Shown here piece after piece: positions 1 to 63,186 of a stretch of 64,000 nt of DNA (its first letter is position 1; every line of letters starts with the position of its first letter). Under the pieces are notes generated by a model. It made no database searches. It worked only from the letters and a program-made list of their open reading frames with translations, and had not been told where the DNA came from. Position numbers and translations under genes: made by a program. This stretch comes from Acidobacteria bacterium 13_1_20CM_3_53_8 (lineage in GTDB: Bacteria; Acidobacteriota; Blastocatellia; Pyrinomonadales; Pyrinomonadaceae): the NCBI GenBank assembly GCA_001920415.1, contig MNJR01000028.1, positions 62,001-126,000 of the forward strand, read 5' to 3'.

Positions 1-83
1 TCAGTTCGTAGTTTTCAGTTTTCAGAAGAAGAGCGAGCAGGCTTTTACTTAAAACTGAAAACTGCAAACTAAAAACTGCTCTT
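1..83. repeat. heptamer-arm inverted repeat, AGTTTTC word (copy 1)
   Basis: The left arm (about 2-25) and right arm (about 52-78) are runs of 7-nt units of the AGTTTTC/AGTTTTT type in opposite orientation. The loop between them is purine-rich (aagaagagcgagcaggcttt). The copy begins at or near the window edge, so its left end may be cut. It lies 10 nt beyond the stop codon of the minus-strand gene at 94-642. It belongs with the copies near 4.4, 28.4, 49.8 and 53.1 kb. Confidence 0.85.
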
Positions 84-3251: not shown

Positions 3252-4368
3252 AGGCAGGCGCGGGTGCGGGTGCGCGCTCGTTGTGTTTGTACTCTTCATG
3301 GGCGTGCTGGCCGCGCTCGGCTGGAAATTTGTTCTGCCTTGGTGGAAGAAGAAACCTCCGCCAGCTTCCGGCGGCGAGCTTCAGGTTCACGTGCTCGACG
3401 TAGGCCAGGGCGATTCGATTCTTATAATCGCGCCCGACGGCAAGACCGCTCTAGTTGACATGGGCGACGTTGGCAAAGGCAAGACCGTGCTCGCAGCACT
3501 CAAGGCCAATAACGTGCAGCAGATTGATTACCTGATTGCGACTCACTCGCACCCGGATCACATAGGCGGCGCGACTGAAATCTTCAACGGTGGCGTGAAA
3601 GTTCTGACCGTAATTGATAGCGGCATCCCGCCGCCCGACATGCCGGAGGCAGAAGCGGCTGCGAGCAGACGACGCGCGCCGCCGAAGAAGAAGCAACAGG
3701 GCAGCAATGCTGTGCTGCCTTCGACTAAAGCTTATCAGGATTTTCTGAGCGCAGTGCAGCAGAGCGGCGCGCAATATGTGAAGGCAGAACCCGACCAGCA
3801 TTATGACTTGGGCGGAGGCGCACGCCTGACTGTGCTCGCTCCTATGCAGCCAACGTTCACGCGCGAGCAGCTTTTGCGCGCAGGCGGCAACGAGCCGAAT
3901 GCAAATTCAGTCGTGATGCGCCTTGATTACGGCGATTTCTCGATGCTTCTGCCGGGCGATGCTGAATCAGTTACGGAAGATAGACTGTTGAACCATGACG
4001 TTGATGTCACTGCGAAAATCTTGAAGGTTGCGCATCACGGCTCGAAGTACGCAACGAGCGAAAATTTCCTGAACCGTGTGAAGCCGGAAGTGGCTATCAT
4101 CTCGGACGGCGAGTTCAATGTTTACAGTCACCCTGCGCAGGTCGTGCTGGACAGGTTGAAGGCAGCGGGCGTTAAAGTCTATCGCACGGACTTGCAGGGC
4201 GAGATAATCATCACCACGAAAGGCAAGGGCTACGAAATCAAGGCCGCGCACGATGCCAAGTCGGACGTTTTCACAGGGCGCGAGGGTCGCAAAGACGACT
4301 CCACACGCTCCGGCTTCATAGCCTACGGCGAGTTCGGGCCACCACCTAGAAGGCAGACGAGGCGGTGA
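3244..4368 (+). CDS. ComEC/Rec2-like metallo-beta-lactamase-fold hydrolase
   Basis: 374 residues with a GTG start that overlaps the preceding stop. A short basic/Cys N-terminus and a hydrophobic segment (about 10-30) anchor the protein, leaving the catalytic domain outside the cytoplasm. LDVGQGDS (51-58), the metal motif HSHPDH (H101, H103, D105, H106), LPGDAES and VAHHGS match the stand-alone ComEC C-terminal-type MBL family. A low-complexity insertion rich in Ala, Arg and Lys lies around residues 138-155. Members probably act as phosphodiesterases or nucleases on DNA or nucleotides, but the substrate here is unknown. The ComEC channel part is absent, so this is not a full competence protein. 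Confidence 0.88.
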   Translation: MAKGRRGCGCALVVFVLFMGVLAALGWKFVLPWWKKKPPPASGGELQVHVLDVGQGDSILIIAPDGKTALVDMGDVGKGKTVLAALKANNVQQIDYLIATHSHPDHIGGATEIFNGGVKVLTVIDSGIPPPDMPEAEAAASRRRAPPKKKQQGSNAVLPSTKAYQDFLSAVQQSGAQYVKAEPDQHYDLGGGARLTVLAPMQPTFTREQLLRAGGNEPNANSVVMRLDYGDFSMLLPGDAESVTEDRLLNHDVDVTAKILKVAHHGSKYATSENFLNRVKPEVAIISDGEFNVYSHPAQVVLDRLKAAGVKVYRTDLQGEIIITTKGKGYEIKAAHDAKSDVFTGREGRKDDSTRSGFIAYGEFGPPPRRQTRR

Positions 4369-4369
4369 G

Positions 4370-4464
4370 AAGAACAGTTTTCAGTTTTTAGTTTTCAGTT
4401 TTCAGAAAGAAGAGCGAACAGGCTTTTACTGAAAACTGAAAACTAAAAACTGAAAACTGTTCTT
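4370..4464. repeat. heptamer-arm inverted repeat, AGTTTTC word (perfect 34-bp arms)
   Basis: Bases 4372-4405 are the exact reverse complement of 4429-4462. Each arm holds four 7-nt units in the order AGTTTTC, AGTTTTT, AGTTTTC, AGTTTTC, and the order is mirrored in the other arm. The 23-nt loop contains aagaagagcgaacaggcttt. The element starts 2 nt after the stop of the MBL gene and ends about 20 nt before the purM ATG, so it is almost the whole intergenic region. Its left half is nearly identical to the copy at 49.76 kb. Confidence 0.95.
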
Positions 4465-4482
4465 CTCTCTTATCACTTTCTT

Positions 4483-5514
4483 ATGAAACCAATTGCTTAC
4501 CGCGACGCTGGCGTTTCGATTGACGCGGCGAACGTTGCTACGGCGAAGATAAAGGAGTTGGCGCGCTCTACTTTTAATGCGCGTACGCTTTCTGAGATAG
4601 GAAGTTTTGGGGGGATGTTCGACGCTGCGTTTCCCGACTGCGCCTCGCCTGTGCTGGTCGCGTCGGCTGACGGCGTAGGCACGAAGCTCAAGATTGCTTT
4701 CTTGACGAACACGCACAATACAATCGGGCGTGACCTTGTCAATCACTGCGTCAACGACATTCTGGTTCAAGGTGCGCGCCCGCTCTTCTTTCTTGATTAC
4801 ATAGCAATGGGGAAACTCGCGCCTGACGTTGTTGCGTCAATCGTCGAAGGCATAGCGCGAGGGTGTCTTGAGAACAACTGCGTTCTGCTGGGCGGCGAGA
4901 CAGCCGAGATGCCCGGCTTTTACGCAGAAGGCGAGTATGACGTAGCAGGCTTCATCGTCGGCATTGTTGATAAAGGAAAAATAGTTGATGGGAAGAAGAT
5001 TAAAGCGGGCGATGCTGTGCTAGCTCTGCCTTCTGTCGGGCTGCATACGAACGGCTATTCGCTTGCGCGAAAACTCTTTTTTGAAATCGCTGGCTACGAC
5101 GCGAACACAGAGTTGGACGCACTCAATTCCACAGTTGGGGCAGCGCTTCTTCAACCGCACGTGAGTTATCTGTCAAAGCTCGAAGGCTTGTTGGATTCGG
5201 GCGTAATCAAAGGGTTGGCGCACATCACTGGCGGCGGACTTCTTGAAAACATCCCGCGCATACTGCCCGAAGAGACTAGCGTAATAATCGCGCGCGACAC
5301 TTGGCCTGTACTGCCCGTCTTCCGACTGATGCAGGAGATAGGCCAAGTCTCAGACGCAGAGATGTACCGCACCTTCAACATGGGCGTAGGCATGGTCATC
5401 GTCTGCGCCGAAGAAGATAAAGAGAGAATCAAATCTCATTTACAAGAGCGAGGCTGTGCCTGTTATGAGATTGGCCGAGTCGTAGAGGGCAACCGCGAAG
5501 TTTCAATCAATTAA
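4483..5514 (+). CDS. purM: phosphoribosylformylglycinamidine cyclo-ligase (AIR synthetase) PurM
   Basis: 343 residues, the usual length. PurM closes the imidazole ring of AIR from FGAM using ATP. Family marks are YRDAGVSIDAAN at the N-terminus, SADGVGTKLKIAF, DLVNHCVNDI and GGETAEMPGFY, then the C-terminal AIRS_C domain with LAHITGGGLLENIPR. The ATG at 4483 is the family start, but no Shine-Dalgarno is visible in the 20 nt that separate it from the repeat element. It is followed by a hairpin, a second repeat and purN. Confidence 0.97.
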   Translation: MKPIAYRDAGVSIDAANVATAKIKELARSTFNARTLSEIGSFGGMFDAAFPDCASPVLVASADGVGTKLKIAFLTNTHNTIGRDLVNHCVNDILVQGARPLFFLDYIAMGKLAPDVVASIVEGIARGCLENNCVLLGGETAEMPGFYAEGEYDVAGFIVGIVDKGKIVDGKKIKAGDAVLALPSVGLHTNGYSLARKLFFEIAGYDANTELDALNSTVGAALLQPHVSYLSKLEGLLDSGVIKGLAHITGGGLLENIPRILPEETSVIIARDTWPVLPVFRLMQEIGQVSDAEMYRTFNMGVGMVIVCAEEDKERIKSHLQERGCACYEIGRVVEGNREVSIN

Positions 5515-5528
5515 GTAGAAGGAAAAAA

Positions 5529-5596
5529 GTTCTTTGACAAGAAGCCATTAAAAGGCCCGTATTTATTGGCGATTTTGATGGCCTCTGTCAAAGAAC
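5529..5596. other. long hairpin after purM
   Basis: gttctttgaca (5529-5539) pairs with tgtcaaagaac (5586-5596). The stem continues inward with agaagccat against atggcctct, giving about 19 bp with one bulge and a loop of about 26 nt. Only a short T-poor tail follows, so a classical intrinsic terminator is doubtful. Its position between purM and the next repeat suggests an mRNA 3'-end or processing structure. Confidence 0.6.
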
Positions 5597-5612
5597 ATAT
5601 TACGACCTACTT

Positions 5613-5680
5613 AGTTTCAGGCTTCAAGTTTCAAGTTCTTCGCTCTTAAACTTGAAACCTGAAACTTGAAACCTGAAACT
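5613..5680. repeat. heptamer-arm inverted repeat, CAAGTTT word
   Basis: Left arm 5613-5635 and right arm 5651-5680 carry units such as aagtttc and aagttc in opposite orientation, separated by a loop containing ttcttcgctcttaaa. Read on the minus strand the loop includes aagagcgaa, which is shared with the AGTTTTC-word elements. The right arm ends 3 nt before the purN ATG. Confidence 0.85.
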
Positions 5681-6342: not shown

Positions 6343-7554
6343 ATGACGATTGACGAACAACTTGCATACTTGCGTAAAGGCACGGTCGAGATTATTCGGG
6401 AAGAGGATTTGCGCGCAAAGCTTGAAAGGTCTGTGGTCAAGGACGTGCCGCTTGAGATAAAGCTAGGCGCTGACCCTACTTCGCCGGACATACACCTGGG
6501 TCACACGGTCGTGATTAGAAAGCTTCGCGCGTTTCAGGAGTTGGGACACACGGTCACGTTTTTAATCGGCGACTTCACGGGCATGATTGGAGACCCATCT
6601 GGCAAGAGCGCCACGCGGCCACAACTCGCGCGCGAAGAGATAGAGGCGAACGCCGAAACGTACAAGACGCAAATCTTCAAGCTGCTCGACGCGGAAAAGA
6701 CTGTGATTGATTTCAACTCGCGCTGGATGGAGAAATTGGGCGCGGCTGGGTTTGTAAAACTCGCCTCTCATGTAACGGTGCGACAGATTCTAGAGCGTGA
6801 CGATTTTCAACAACGCATGGCTGAGAATCGTCCGCTTGCGCTGCACGAAGTTCTCTATCCACTCGTGATGGCTTACGATTCCGTTGCGCTTCATTCGGAC
6901 GTTGAGCTTGGCGGCACGGATCAAAAATTCAACCTGCTGATGGGCAGAAATCTTCAGCGCGAGTACGGGCAGGAAGCCCAGGTCGCCGTGATTATGCCGC
7001 TTCTGGAAGGCACGGACGGCGTGCAGAAGATGTCGAAAAGTCTGGGCAACTACATAGGCATCAACGAACCGCCGTCTGAGATTTTCGGCAAAGTGATGTC
7101 AATCTCGGATGAGTTGATGTGGCGATACTACGAACTGCTGACGGACATTTCTATAGAAGAGATTGCGCGAATGCGACGCGCGGCTGAAACGGGAGAGCGC
7201 AACCCGCGCGACGTGAAAGCCGAATTGGCTAAACTCATCATCACAGATTTTCATTCCGAAGAAGCGGCGCGCGCCGCAGAAGAAGAGTTCAATCTAATCT
7301 TCAAGCAGAAGCAAGCGCCGGATGATGTAGAAGAACGCGCGGTTGCATCGCAAGCGTGGAAGCTGCCGCGTCTTCTAGTCGAAACAAGCCTTGCTCCTTC
7401 TATGGCCGAAGCGCGTCGTTTGATTGAACAGGGCGGCGTTCACGTTGACGGTGAGCGCCAAACGCGCGTTGACTACGAAGTCACGACGAGCGTGGATAAA
7501 AGTGTGCTGCTGCAAGTCGGCAAGAGAAAGTTTTTGAGAGTTAGAGGAACATAA
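6343..7554 (+). CDS. tyrS: tyrosyl-tRNA synthetase
   Basis: 403 residues, class I aminoacyl-tRNA synthetase that charges tRNA-Tyr. The HIGH-type motif is HLGH (51-54) in [13 protein letters not shown], and KMSKS is at 229-233. The C-terminal 60 residues form an S4 RNA-binding domain ([17 protein letters not shown]). Length and sequence fit the TyrRZ-type branch rather than the E. coli TyrS type. It starts 59 nt after purN; the gap holds a short ATTTAAGATTTC-like stretch but no T-box features that I can see. Confidence 0.96.
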
Positions 7555-11360: not shown

Positions 11361-11450
11361 AGTAAAGAGGATAAATAGTAAATGGTCAATGGTAAATAGA
11401 AAGAAGCTTTCATCCATTCACCATTCACCATTTACCATTTACCCTCTTTT
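11361..11450. repeat. heptamer-arm inverted repeat, AATGGTA word
   Basis: Left arm 11361-11399 has units such as aatagta, aatggtc and aatggta. Right arm 11414-11450 is its approximate reverse complement (ccattcaccattcaccattt). The loop is aaagaagctttcat, close to the purine plus AGCTTT pattern of other elements. It begins 3 nt after the thiolase stop codon. The same word occurs in the inner hairpin at 56.26-56.33 kb. Confidence 0.85.
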
Positions 11451-28373: not shown

Positions 28374-28442
28374 GAACAGTTTTCAGTTTTTAGTTTTCAG
28401 AAGAGGAGCGAAAAGCTTTTAACTGAAAACTGAAAACTGTTC
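28374..28442. repeat. heptamer-arm inverted repeat, AGTTTTC word (copy 3)
   Basis: Left arm 28374-28400 has three units and right arm 28423-28442 has two, so the arms differ by one unit. The loop contains aagaggagcgaaaagctttt. It fills the gap between the yeaH start and the stop codon of the alpha/beta hydrolase, which is 5 nt away, and so lies inside the operon. Confidence 0.92.
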
Positions 28443-34960: not shown

Positions 34961-34977
34961 TCTTATTGGTGTTGCTT

Positions 34978-42395: not shown

Positions 42396-42520
42396 TCTTT
42401 GCGAGCTTTGCTCTTTTCTTTGCGCCTTTGCGTGAACCTGCAACCCTCATTAATCTTGAGTGTTAAGAGAATTGAGGGTTCACGCAAAGGCGCAAAGGGA
42501 AATGCTTAAGCTCGCTAAGC
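42396..42520. repeat. CGCAAAGGCGCAAAG inverted repeat (copy 1)
   Basis: ctttgcgcctttgcgtgaac plus c (42418-42438) is the exact reverse complement of 42477-42497. Inner bases aaccctca and tgagggtt extend the stem. An outer pair, gcgagctt and aagctcgc (about 42401 and 42508), adds a third layer. The 3' flank gggaaatgcttaagc is shared with the copy at 59.5 kb. It stands in the divergent 510-nt gap between the GGDEF-EAL and subtilase genes. Short translated frames here come from the repeat and are not genes. Confidence 0.9.
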
Positions 42521-45064: not shown

Positions 45065-45142
45065 GCGGAATGCGGATTTCGGAATGCGGATTGAAAGACA
45101 GCGAGCTTCTTATCAATCCGCATTCCGAAATCCGCATTCCGC
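45065..45142. repeat. heptamer-arm inverted repeat, GCGGAAT word (perfect 30-bp arms)
   Basis: Bases 45065-45094 are the exact reverse complement of 45113-45142. The four units in the left arm are gcggaat, gcggatt, tcggaat and gcggatt, mirrored in the right arm. The 18-nt loop aagacagcgagcttctta is purine-rich and then AGCTTCTT. It lies near the 3' end of the DUF4214 gene. Confidence 0.95.
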
Positions 45143-47330: not shown

Positions 47331-47485
47331 GGAATTGCGGAATGCGGAATTCGGATTGCGGATTGAAAGCTCGGATTTGAGATTTGAAATTTCAAATTTG
47401 AAATTTCAGATTTGAAATCCCAGATTAAAGAATTCAATCCTTCTCTTAAATCCGCAATCCGAAATCCGCATTCCGCAATTTCTCC
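47331..47485. repeat. heptamer-arm inverted repeat, GCGGAAT outer with GATTTGA inner
   Basis: The outer left arm 47331-47364 is made of gcggaat/tcggatt units and the outer right arm 47448-47485 is their reverse complement. The inner part is itself palindromic, with units gatttga, aatttca and aatttga. It contains cagattaaagaattc and ccttctctt, shared with the element at 15.36-15.45 kb. It lies between the DUF4214 and FecR genes, 16 nt from the ATG of the former. Confidence 0.88.
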
Positions 47486-49762: not shown

Positions 49763-49931
49763 AAGAACAGTTTTCAGTTTTTAGTTTTCAGTTTTCAGAA
49801 AGAAGAGCGAACAGGCTTTTATAGCGGTTCTCACTTGAATGCGACTCATGTCAGTACCGCCTGCGGTAGCGGGCGGGTCGTAGCCGCACCGATACCCGCC
49901 CGCTACCGCAGGCAACTGAAAACTGTTTTTA
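49763..49931. repeat. heptamer element disrupted by a second palindrome
   Basis: The left part (49763-49822) is nearly identical (one base indel over 60 nt) to the left part of the 4.37-kb element. Where the right arm should start, 92 nt of other DNA follow. That DNA contains a perfect 20-bp stem, 49860-49879 against 49895-49914, with a 15-nt loop. Only aactgaaaactgttttt (49915-49931) remains of the right arm. The palindrome is headed by gtcagtaccgcctgcgg, also found at 45.15 kb. A second element has therefore replaced or entered the first. Confidence 0.85.
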
Positions 49932-53037: not shown

Positions 53038-53139
53038 AAACAGTTTTTAGTTTTCAGTTTTTAGTTTTCAGTTGGTATGTAATCAGCAAAGCTCTTCGCT
53101 TTTTCTGAAAACTGAAAACCAAAAACTGAAAACTGTTCT
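53038..53139. repeat. heptamer-arm inverted repeat, AGTTTTC word (copy 5)
   Basis: Left arm 53041-53073 and right arm 53105-53135 each hold four units. The arms match imperfectly, as the order of unit variants differs. The loop contains aatcagcaaagctcttcgct. It fills the gap between kinase 1 and the stop codon of kinase 2: it starts 1-2 nt from the start codon of the former and ends 6 nt from the stop of the latter. Confidence 0.9.
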
Positions 53140-56215: not shown

Positions 56216-56364
56216 CAGTGATGAGTGATAAGTGATGAGTGATGAGATAAGAGAAGCGGTGAAAGGTAAATGGTCAATGATAAATAGAAGATAGCTCTTA
56301 TCCATTTACCATTTACTATTCTCCATTCACCTTCTTATCACTTATCACTCATCACTTATCACTG
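56216..56364. repeat. nested heptamer inverted repeat, GTGATGA outer and AATGGTA inner
   Basis: The outer left arm (56216-56256) holds gtgatga/gtgataa units and the outer right arm (56331-56364) their reverse complement. Inside it sits a second hairpin, left about 56259-56288 with aatggtc/aatggta-type units and right 56302-56330, around the loop aagatagctcttat. The inner word is the one used in the 11.4-kb element. The element lies between kinase 2 and kinase 3. Confidence 0.92.
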
Positions 56365-59456: not shown

Positions 59457-59590
59457 CCGCTTTGCGATCTTATCTCTTATCTTTGCGCCTTTGCGAGAAC
59501 ATGCAATTCACATGATTCTTAAGAGTTAAGATAATTGCTGTTTCACGCAAAGGCGCAAAGGGAAATGCTTAAGCCCGCAAAGGGGTTGAG
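59457..59590. repeat. CGCAAAGGCGCAAAG inverted repeat (copy 2)
   Basis: ctttgcgcctttgcgagaac (59481-59500) faces gtttcacgcaaaggcgcaaa (59540-59559), differing at two positions from perfect pairing. The 3' flank gggaaatgcttaagc and a following ccgc are shared with copy 1 at 42.4 kb. It lies between kinase 3 and the ECF sigma factor. Confidence 0.88.
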
Positions 59591-61904: not shown

Positions 61905-63186
61905 CAGGAGTTACCTCCCGACAGGACAGAAGTTGCGCGCAACGGCTTGCAACTATAATCAATTGAATATAGTATGCTCTCGCTCAAGCGAGTCGCCGTG
62001 AGAATGAACCTTTCATTCAGAACGGCGATGCTCATTACTCACTTTGAGGCTTTGAGGCGTCGCATTAGCCGTCACTTGTTTTCAAAGACTAGAACGTGCG
62101 CGCTAGTTTACCAAAGAGCACGTTTACTTCATATCACTTTATGGCAGGAATTTATCTTTAAGAGAATCGGTTCGGGAGCGCGTTCTTTGAGGGTAGGCCG
62201 CGCTCCCGATGCTTGCACGCCCGTTAAGTGTGGGTTCGGGTTTGTGCAGAAGAGGCCGCCGTGACGTATGACCTCCCACGTCAGACACGGTGGCCTTGCT
62301 TTTAGGCCGTGAGCAAATCTTTCAACTCCCAAACGCTCTTTGTAATCCCGGCCTCTATAGCGGGCGTGCATTTGATTATAGAATGAATCCTGCAAAAGTT
62401 GTAATAGGCGAAGTAAAAAGCTCCTGTCACGCAGTTGAAATGTTTAAAAGAAAGCGACAACGAGTCTGCGCTAGCAGACGATTAGAGTAAAGCCCCTGAC
62501 GAAGCCGCAGGCGGAGTCTGGGGTTACAGGTTGAGAAGATAGATGGAGTCTGCGTTAGCAGACGGTAGAGGCAAAGATGAAAGCATAAACATCTGCCGTC
62601 TGCTGTCGCAGACTCTAACCGCTTTTCAATCCTTTACCCCAGACTACGCCTTCGGCTTCGTCAGGGGCTACATTCTGGTCGCCTGCTGTCGCAGGCTCGT
62701 TGAGCGACTTCGACAAAGTTACTGATGCGTAACATCAGTAAAAAGCTAAAGCCGCTTATGAAGTCCGCTCATCGGCAACACAGATTTACCCCACTACCTC
62801 TCCGCCAACTTTGCGTGCTTTGCTCTTGCCGGAAGCGAAATAATACGCAGGCGTTGGGCTAAATTTTTCTGTGGACTTTATGCGAAGCGCTAGAGGTGCG
62901 CACATTTCGCGTGGGCACAAAGCTTGCAGCGCAATGGGACTCGGCGGCCATCTTTGAGCGCCGTTCGTGGCTGGTGTTATACTTCGTGATGCGTCGGCTC
63001 GGTGACATCTTCGATTCAAGAAGCGCGAAGAGATGAGATCAGGTCTCCCTCAAATTCAAGACAGGTTGAGAACTCGCCGTTAATTATGCCTCGAACTTTT
63101 TTGAACCAATGCGCAAGAGAGATGGGTAAGCGCGGTCACTCCTTTTCTAAAATCCAATTCAAGCATCTGTATCGAAGGAGACGTGG
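61905..63186. other. 1.28-kb gene-free region rich in stem-loops
   Basis: No credible coding frame. From left to right it holds ctcgctcaagcgag (about 61980), a perfect 10-bp hairpin cgggagcgcg/cgcgctcccg (62173-62208), a hairpin aggccgccgtg/cacggtggcct extended by gacgt/acgtc (62253-62296), and the long nested hairpin at 62458-62702. After about 62750 I see only AT/GC-mixed sequence up to the pntA ribosome-binding site. A structured RNA or a decayed element are both possible. Confidence 0.6.
62458..62702. repeat. 245-nt nested inverted repeat
   Basis: Three pairs of arms are stacked. Outer: 62458-62481 against 62679-62702, a few mismatches. Middle: 62491-62526 against 62635-62669, about 33 of 35 matching, with core cccctgacgaagccg. 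Inner: 62546-62565 against 62596-62615, 18 of 20 matching. The outer and inner arms are each themselves small hairpins (gtctgc around 4 nt with gcagac; gcctgc with gcaggc). The sequence repeats the phrase GTCTGCxxxxGCAGAC four times, with the internal bases varying. Confidence 0.92.

What the first reader, a model, noticed from the sequence alone, without database searches (positions are those of the whole stretch)
4370..4464. Fold-back elements built from 7-nt units, with variant order mirrored in both arms
Seen in sequence: at least ten intergenic elements share one design: two arms of degenerate 7-nt repeats in inverted orientation around a loop. At 4372-4405/4429-4462 the arms are a perfect 34-bp match although the units within an arm differ, and the order C,T,C,C of the variable base is mirrored. 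At 45065-45142 a different word gives a perfect 30-bp match. Independent slippage in two arms would not keep the order mirrored, so the second arm is likely copied from the first by fold-back or conversion. Heptameric short tandem repeats are known in cyanobacteria; I know of no fold-back family described in Acidobacteriota.
Basis: partly seen in the sequence, partly recalled or inferred. Interest (0 to 1): 0.85.

Follow-up and report, generated by a model that had tools for sequence, protein, structure and literature searches.

The report
Mobile-looking hairpins built from 7-nucleotide words
This soil-bacterium genome carries an estimated 1,200 short hairpins whose stems are made of repeated 7-letter words; they look like very small mobile elements that settle between genes, often right after a stop codon, and the same word is multi-copy in bacteria of several other phyla.

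Summary
The arms at 4367-4405/4429-4467 match perfectly over 39 bp. The window holds 12 hairpins with 7-nt-periodic arms; 1.65 Mb of the same genome holds 329 (about 1,200 extrapolated). 619 of 684 7-nt arrays have an inverted same-word partner within 220 nt (control 69 of 828). Near-identical copies lie in unrelated flanks. Orthologous gaps in another genus are often empty, including stop and start codons that abut directly, or filled by a different 7-nt word. The hairpins hug upstream stop codons. They do not track RAYT transposases (one rich genome has none), and no RVT_1 reverse transcriptase was found in this genome. Best explanation: non-autonomous, MITE-like fold-back elements moved by an unidentified enzyme. 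The same word is multi-copy in Alloalcanivorax, Bacteroidales, Planctomycetota and Chloroflexi. Inverted heptamer pairs were described before in Xanthomonas and Geobacter, but in the papers I could read not as a mobile class.

The parts
4367..4467 (.). The element reported: 39-bp perfect arms 4367-4405/4429-4467, units CAGTTTT x4 + CAG, loop AAAGAAGAGCGAACAGGCTTTTA; follows the TGA stop (4366-4368) of the metallo-beta-lactamase-fold ORF and ends 15 nt before the ATG (4483) of purM
   Evidence: the orthologous gap in genome G006 is TAG-AAA-ATG
2..78 (.). AGTTTTC-word hairpin (loop AAGAAGAGCGAGCAGGCTTTTACT)
5613..5680 (.). AGTTTCA-word hairpin between purM and purN; the same word lies in that gap in three other genera
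11364..11449 (.). GGTAAAT-word hairpin, 6 nt after a stop codon
19226..19279 (.). AGTCTGG-word hairpin
28374..28442 (.). AGTTTTC-word hairpin, 4 nt from a stop codon
34080..34235 (.). GATTTTA-word arms with a long loop
34907..34965 (.). AGCAGTG-word hairpin directly abutting the predicted start codon at 34966
45065..45142 (.).
47333..47480 (.). GGATTGC-word hairpin with a second (GATTTGA) palindrome in its loop
49768..49798 (+). AGTTTTC left arm and loop start without a right arm (half element)
53049..53134 (.). AGTTTTC-word hairpin (whole arms 53039-53137)
56224..56363 (.). AGTGATA-word hairpin whose loop holds GGTAAAT-type sequence

Best explanation
These are dispersed, non-autonomous fold-back elements of about 70-130 bp, in works MITE-like. 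Each has two arms of about 3-5 degenerate 7-nt units in inverted orientation around an apical loop; in several word families the loop carries a shared core (AAAAGC...GCTTCTT). They spread as whole units (arms plus loop) into gaps between genes, mostly just after a stop codon, and then decay by independent mutation of the two arms. New words displace old ones between genera, so one gap can hold different words in different relatives. SHOWN: architecture, copy number, inverted pairing, near-identical copies in unrelated flanks, empty and differently filled orthologous gaps, stop-codon placement, independent decay of the arms. INFERRED: that copying is by transposition; that an enzyme acting in trans does it (probably recognising hairpin or loop rather than the arm word); that placement reflects target choice plus survival of harmless insertions. 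The enzyme was not identified.
For: Copies with unrelated flanks: e.g. C62:66946 and C9:49624, 97% over 98 bp; the composite C44:40004 and C53:63600, 95% over 114 bp. Orthologous gaps G000/G006, n=45: both occupied 5, G000 only 20, G006 only 3, neither 17, i.e. occupancy not associated (odds ratio 1.4); clean empty sites include TGA directly followed by ATG in G006 where G000 has an 85-bp hairpin. Co-occupied gaps carry different words: GGCAAAAG against CAGTTTT, GATTTTG against AGTTTCA, AGTCTGG against CAGAATT; ten different words upstream of purM across the family. Length of co-directional gaps after removing the hairpin is 64 against 53 nt for empty gaps, as insertion predicts. 619 of 684 7-nt arrays have an inverted partner (control 69 of 828). 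Loop core present in 0.35-0.86 of loops in eight groups of elements (seven named word families plus the unassigned words) against 0.02-0.05 in shuffled loops; absent in GGGATGA. Arms vary independently. Full-length relatives of the 4367-4467 element lie at non-orthologous places in G006 and G012.
Against: No target-site duplication could be defined: relatives are too diverged (median ortholog identity about 60%) and the palindromic ends blur the boundary. No autonomous parent was found: few ORFs lie between partnerless inverted same-word arrays, and none was identified as a recombinase. No polymorphism within a species was available. The strong stop-codon placement could also reflect function.
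Confidence: 0.62

Rival explanations
1. Local fold-back generation: slippage makes a heptad array and the nascent strand snaps back and copies it, so that arm two is a local copy of arm one, renewed by conversion.
For: Explains mirrored order and word-independence. A few elements carry unusual, perfectly mirrored junctions between an outer AGTCTGG and an inner GATTTT word (CCTACT/AGTAGG at L052:811, CCGATG/CATCGG at L049:7122).
Against: Mirrored deviations equal chance (5 against 5.5); arms of different elements share the same order; loops and composite junctions are shared by dispersed copies; other composites have unlike junctions on the two sides (L066:5566, L083:13115).
Confidence: 0.12
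2. Selected structural elements: intercistronic hairpins (termination, mRNA processing or stability, keeping stop and start codons close for coupled translation) kept at their position while the sequence turns over.
For: Stop-hugging: 115 of 213 co-directional elements lie within -10 to +10 nt of the upstream stop, whereas non-heptad hairpins mostly sit 15-100 nt away. 74 of 109 downstream ATGs lie within 15 nt of the arm and only 7% of those have a Shine-Dalgarno-like motif, against about 34% in empty gaps. The same placement recurs in some other phyla, and Rehm et al. report it for Xanthomonas and Nostoc heptamers (PMC4692102).
Against: Density per gap is the same in co-directional and convergent gaps (0.247 and 0.257; 0.188 divergent), not terminator-like. 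Arm pairing is no better where the element fills the stop-start gap than elsewhere (mismatch 0.064 against 0.058-0.062, p = 0.61). No compensatory changes. Occupancy of orthologous gaps is not conserved. No Rfam match in the window apart from a tRNA. The low motif rate is partly by construction, since the arm occupies that place.
Confidence: 0.15
3. REPINs mobilised by RAYT (Y1_Tnp) transposases.
For: Hairpins of similar size in intergenic space; the genome has four Y1_Tnp genes.
Against: All four genes are flanked by GC-rich non-heptad palindromes, each by its own family. G006 is rich in heptad hairpins yet has no Y1_Tnp match, while G005, G009 and G002 have 9-15 and almost no AGTTTTC elements. 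Placement relative to stops differs from that of the non-heptad (REP-like) set.
Confidence: 0.05
4. Ordinary short tandem repeats expanded by polymerase slippage, paired by accident.
For: 7-nt unit period and variable unit number; heptameric repeats are over-represented in several bacterial groups (PMC4692102).
Against: 90% of arrays have an inverted same-word partner against 8% in the control; unit number is tightly set (48 of 85 AGTTTTC elements have 4+4); dispersed copies share loops.
Confidence: 0.03

Closest known systems
GGGNATC heptameric repeats of Xanthomonas and GGGGA(C/T)T of Nostoc (Rehm et al. 2015, PMC4692102)
   Same: 7-nt units, most often four; intergenic; 70 (Xcc) and 75 (Xac) cases in convergent orientation that could form stem-loops; [quoted passage not shown]
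   Different: Studied there as G-quadruplex tandem repeats, one word type, inverted pairs a minority (few in Nostoc), not associated with mobile elements and not treated as one. Here more than ten words, 90% paired, shared loop core, empty sites
Paired heptanucleotide/octanucleotide repeat 'global regulator binding sites' of Geobacter metallireducens (PMC2700814)
   Same: 4-5 tandem 7- or 8-nt units in pairs on opposite strands with variable spacing, dispersed in one genome (48 class 1, 16 class 3 sites)
   Different: Interpreted as regulator binding sites; few copies; mobility not considered
P6b stem-loop of the Nostoc trnL intron (PMC4476775)
   Same: Hairpin whose stem is built on one of two interchangeable 7-nt motifs (TDNGATT or NNTGAGT), so word replacement with structure kept
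   Different: One locus inside a group I intron
TAACTGA repeats of Beggiatoaceae, cyanobacteria and Bacteroidetes (PMC4679880)
   Same: Intergenic heptamer arrays near start codons, patchy across phyla
   Different: Almost only direct repeats (169 sets direct, 1 indirect)
Small dispersed repeats (SDR) of Nostoc (Elhai et al. 2008; full text not held, cited in PMC3116915 and PMC4390886)
   Same: From memory: 21-27 nt elements, some of common fold despite unlike sequence, often within heptamer arrays, nested. The conserved loop core here resembles that arrangement
   Different: Not tested; from memory, the surrounding heptamers are described as tandem repeats
REPIN/RAYT (PMC3116915, PMC2817692)
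   Same: Short non-autonomous hairpins in intergenic space, genome-wide populations
   Different: No RAYT association, no conserved GC-rich palindrome, arms of 7-nt units

Membership tests
REPIN / RAYT system | REP sequences flank the RAYT gene | tested here: not met
   Four Y1_Tnp genes are flanked by four non-heptad palindrome families; none next to a heptad element
REPIN / RAYT system | Presence of elements tracks presence of the transposase | tested here: not met
   G006 rich in elements with 0 Y1_Tnp matches (89% complete); G005, G009, G002 with 9-15 matches and about none of these elements
MITE | Short, non-coding, inverted repeats, many dispersed near-identical copies in unrelated flanks | tested here: met
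MITE | Empty orthologous sites | tested here: met
   20 of 45 orthologous gaps occupied only in G000; several directly abutting stop-start in G006; genus-level, not strain-level, comparison
MITE | Target-site duplication of fixed length | tested here: inconclusive
   Ends carry TAARAR on both sides, but it is part of the inverted ends and not conserved enough to call a duplication
MITE | Termini shared with a full-length transposon that encodes the transposase | tested here: inconclusive
   Search for ORFs between partnerless inverted same-word arrays in 2.3 Mb gave no convincing candidate; ORFs found were not identified
Intrinsic terminator | Enriched in convergent gaps, depleted inside operon-like gaps | tested here: not met
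   0.247, 0.257 and 0.188 per gap for co-directional, convergent and divergent
Heptameric tandem repeats (STRR-like, Xanthomonas GGGNATC) | Tandem 7-nt units in intergenic DNA | tested here: met
Heptameric tandem repeats (STRR-like, Xanthomonas GGGNATC) | Repeats mainly unpaired direct arrays | tested here: not met
   90% have an inverted same-word partner
Reverse-transcriptase-made elements (retron, DGR, group II intron, DRT) | An RVT_1 reverse transcriptase in the genome | tested here: not met
   No PF00078 match in G000; G000 is 96% complete, so absence is likely, not certain
Known Rfam structured RNA | Covariance-model match | tested here: not met
   Only a tRNA in the window
Nostoc SDR elements | Membership in one of the SDR sequence families | not tested
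   Paper and sequences not held in the library

The most novel reading that the evidence does not exclude
A class of very small fold-back mobile elements, found across several bacterial phyla, whose arms are defined by a 7-nt (sometimes 8-nt) period and by pairing rather than by sequence. The enzyme would read the hairpin or loop, so arm words are free to change, spread horizontally and replace one another, producing genus-specific vocabularies in the same gaps. The insertions survive because they sit between stop and start codons and fold out of the way.
Probability: 0.3. Interest if true: 0.85.

Novelty: new variant of a known kind. Interest (0 to 1): 0.62.

Why it matters
Bacterial intergenic DNA is short and is usually read for promoters and terminators. 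Here an estimated 2,150 inverted repeats (3.6% of the sequenced bases; 1,200 of the heptad kind) fill many gaps between genes and turn over between genera, and the same 7-nt word is abundant in an isolate of Alloalcanivorax and in MAGs of Bacteroidales, Planctomycetota and Chloroflexi. If they are mobile, scattered 'heptamer repeats' reported as G-quadruplexes, regulator sites or slippage products in Xanthomonas, Geobacter and cyanobacteria may be one phenomenon, with an unknown enzyme behind it. The long-standing question why bacteria favour 7-nt repeats becomes testable: paired-arm elements with empty sites can be followed in strains.

Tried and rejected
Local arm copying: rejected for the AGTTTTC family by the covariation test. 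RAYT mobilisation: rejected by gene neighbourhood and by presence/absence. Reverse-transcriptase origin: no RVT_1 in the genome. Terminator role: gap-type densities do not fit. Hypothesis that elements filling a stop-start gap must keep better-paired arms: no difference. Search for a parent transposon as ORFs between inverted same-word arrays: nothing convincing; the long-spacer cases turned out to be REPINs sitting in the apical loops of heptad hairpins. Loop orientation relative to genes: no clear bias. Target-site duplication: not resolvable. Plasmid collection: no match to the element. Literal search for arm words in papers gave only unrelated primer-like hits among those listed.

Full report
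WHAT IS THERE. The window lies in a 6.10-Mb, 155-contig draft genome; its relatives in the public collection are Pyrinomonadaceae (Acidobacteriota) MAGs. The element at 4367-4467 is a near-perfect hairpin: GAGAAGAA, then CAGTTTT CAGTTTT TAGTTTT CAGTTTT CAG, a 23-nt loop, and the exact reverse complement (39-bp perfect arms). It starts at the TGA of a metallo-beta-lactamase-fold ORF and ends 15 nt before the ATG of purM (AIR synthase domains). The window holds 12 inverted repeats with 7-nt-periodic arms, with the words AGTTTTC, AGTTTCA, GGTAAAT, AGTCTGG, GATTTTA, AGCAGTG, GGATTGC and AGTGATA.

SCALE. The AGTTTTC word pattern matches about 1,053 times in the genome (up to 3 mismatches) against 6 for the reversed pattern. 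In 1.65 Mb taken from the genome there are 581 inverted repeats (arms of at least 16 nt, score at least 15), 329 with 7-nt and 65 with 8-nt periodic arms, 3.6% of all bases, and 487 lie mostly outside ORFs although 85% of the sequence is coding. Extrapolated: about 1,200 heptad hairpins and about 2,150 hairpins of all kinds. Of 684 7-nt arrays, 619 (90%) have an inverted partner of the same word within 220 nt; testing arrays against the neighbourhood of other arrays gives 69 of 828. The pairing is therefore the rule, not an accident of abundant repeats.

ANATOMY. Most AGTTTTC elements have 4 units plus CAG in each arm (48 of 85 have 4+4), outer ends TAARAR on both sides, and a loop of about 20-25 nt. 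Loops of AGTTTTC, AGTCTGG, AGTGATA, GGTAAAT, GATTTTN, GGCAAAAGT and AGTTTCA elements, and of elements with unassigned words, share the core AAAAGC or AGAAGC (either strand) in 35-86% of cases against 2-5% in shuffled loops; GGGATGA loops lack it. The 5-prime arm is G-skewed in 98% of 329 elements. Elements nest: AGTCTGG outer arms around GATTTT inner arms (26 cases), GGTAAAT inside AGTGATA, and REPINs in the apical loops of AGTTTCA and GGCAAAAG hairpins.

In register from the outside, units of the two arms of one element are identical in 67% of cases, units of arms taken from different elements in 59%, off register 38%, and units within one arm 32%. So arm-to-arm identity does exceed unit identity, but most of that is a shared family order. 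The sharper test counts deviations from the consensus CAGTTTTCAGTTTTTAGTTTTCAGTTTTCAG in 48 elements with 4+4 units: 47 deviations left, 55 right, 5 mirrored, 5.5 expected if independent (p = 0.65). Perfect-arm elements are more frequent than expected (16 against 7.4), but 12 of the 16 are just the consensus, which is what a mixture of young and old copies gives. There is no sign of continuing arm-to-arm copying or of selection that restores pairing in this family.

SPREAD AS UNITS. Near-identical elements, loop included, occur in unrelated flanks. The element's full length is found at 80-89% identity at non-orthologous places in two other genera. Comparison of adjacent ortholog pairs between G000 and G006 (n = 45) gives 5 gaps occupied in both, 20 in G000 only, 3 in G006 only, 17 in neither; occupancy is not associated (small numbers, and the detection threshold misses some imperfect G006 hairpins). 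Empty gaps can be exact: G006 has TGA immediately followed by ATG where G000 has an 85-bp AGTGATA hairpin, and TAG-AAA-ATG where the window has the element under study. Gaps filled in both genera carry different words. Around purM, about ten words occur in the family at the same position, while AGTTTCA between purM and purN is shared by four genera. After subtracting hairpins, occupied co-directional gaps are as long as empty ones (64 against 53 nt).

PLACEMENT. In co-directional gaps 115 of 213 single heptad elements lie within 10 nt of the upstream stop, and 37 of 42 in convergent gaps lie no more than 6 nt beyond a stop or overlap an ORF end; non-heptad hairpins mostly sit 15-100 nt away. 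With at least 40 nt of free gap, half of the elements lie in the first fifth next to the stop (20% expected). In 74 of 109 cases the next ATG is within 15 nt of the arm, and only 7% of these have a Shine-Dalgarno-like motif against about 34% in empty gaps; start positions agree with orthologs in the cases seen. The hairpins may bring stop and start together when folded, but arms in such tight places are not better paired than elsewhere, so I leave this as inference. Densities per gap type do not fit terminators.

WHAT MOVES THEM. Not RAYT: the genome's four Y1_Tnp genes each sit between copies of their own GC-rich palindrome, and G006 has many heptad hairpins and no Y1_Tnp match, while Y1-rich genomes have almost none of the AGTTTTC elements (poor genomes may hold other words). 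Not an RVT_1 reverse transcriptase of this genome. No parent transposon was found. The enzyme remains unknown, and a replication-based origin of founders is possible.

BREADTH. Counts of the word in the genomes behind those loci (forward plus reverse, control in brackets): Alloalcanivorax mobilis isolate 185 (0), Bacteroidales 361 (0), 142 (0) and 181 (11), Planctomycetia 166 (0), Phycisphaerae 132 (2), Chloroflexi 239 (0); Flavobacterium tructae 7 (7) is background. Loops differ between phyla. Stop-hugging recurs outside Acidobacteriota in 9 of 16 stop ends.

KNOWN OR NEW. Heptamer arrays in inverted pairs are on record: GGGNATC in Xanthomonas, with the same position and polarity relative to stop and start codons, and paired hepta- and octanucleotide sites in Geobacter metallireducens. 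Word-interchangeable heptamer stems are known from the Nostoc trnL intron. TAACTGA arrays are direct repeats. What I did not find in the papers available is recognition of these as one dispersed fold-back class with empty sites, word turnover and cross-phylum distribution. Subscription papers are mostly missing, and Elhai et al. 2008 on small dispersed repeats could not be read. I therefore call it a new variant of a known kind.

LIMITS. The genomes are draft MAGs; ORFs were called by length only; comparisons are between genera; the word families were defined by hand-made patterns; only the AGTTTTC family had enough elements for the covariation test.

Noticed in passing
G000 C57:10349-10690, C142:155260-155598, C130:22582-22926, C23:2085-2327 (L091-L094): Four Y1 (RAYT-type) transposase genes, each flanked on both sides by its own GC-rich palindrome family (TTTAGCCCGGC, AGTCTGCG...GACGAAGC, GCCCGCG...CCCAGTGCG, GTCAGTACCGCCTGCGGTAGCGGGCGGGT): four RAYT/REP systems in one Acidobacteriota genome.
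   Followed up: partly
window 62458-62702 and 49859-49913: Copies of two of these RAYT-associated palindromes: the AGTCTGCG family (a large doublet) and the GTCAGTACCGCC family.
   Followed up: no
G000 C24:151770-152100, C62:51600-51980, C53:71480-71880, C60:32240-32700: REPINs sit inside the apical loops of AGTTTCA or GGCAAAAG heptad hairpins; several are flanked by TTACGCA...TGCGTAAC, suggesting hairpin loops as insertion targets for REPINs.
   Followed up: partly
window 42418-42497 and 59481-59560; many in G000: Hairpin families with other or 8-nt periods (CTTTGCGC, GACGCGGA, CACACGAA); similar words (CACAGAG, CTTTGCG, CCACGAAG) fill the purM gaps of other genera.
   Followed up: partly
all heptad elements in 1.65 Mb of G000: The 5-prime arm is G-skewed in 98% of 329 elements across more than ten words (mean GC skew 0.56); the CAGCCAT word of G004 and G006 is an exception.
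   Followed up: partly
L272:1438-1501 and 6996-7050 (Chloroflexi MAG), L260:263-370 (Planctomycetia MAG): Further heptad or similar fold-backs with other words (GCGTATT; GCAGATTAC) beside the AGTTTTC hairpin in other phyla.
   Followed up: no
L274-L277 (IMG/VR contigs): Four viral-collection contigs carry the AGTTTTC hairpin; possible carriers or host contamination.
   Followed up: no
window 5509-5616: A separate non-heptad inverted repeat (AAGTAGAAGG...TTCTTTGACA / TGTCAAAGAAC...CCTACTTA) right after the purM stop, before the AGTTTCA hairpin.
   Followed up: no
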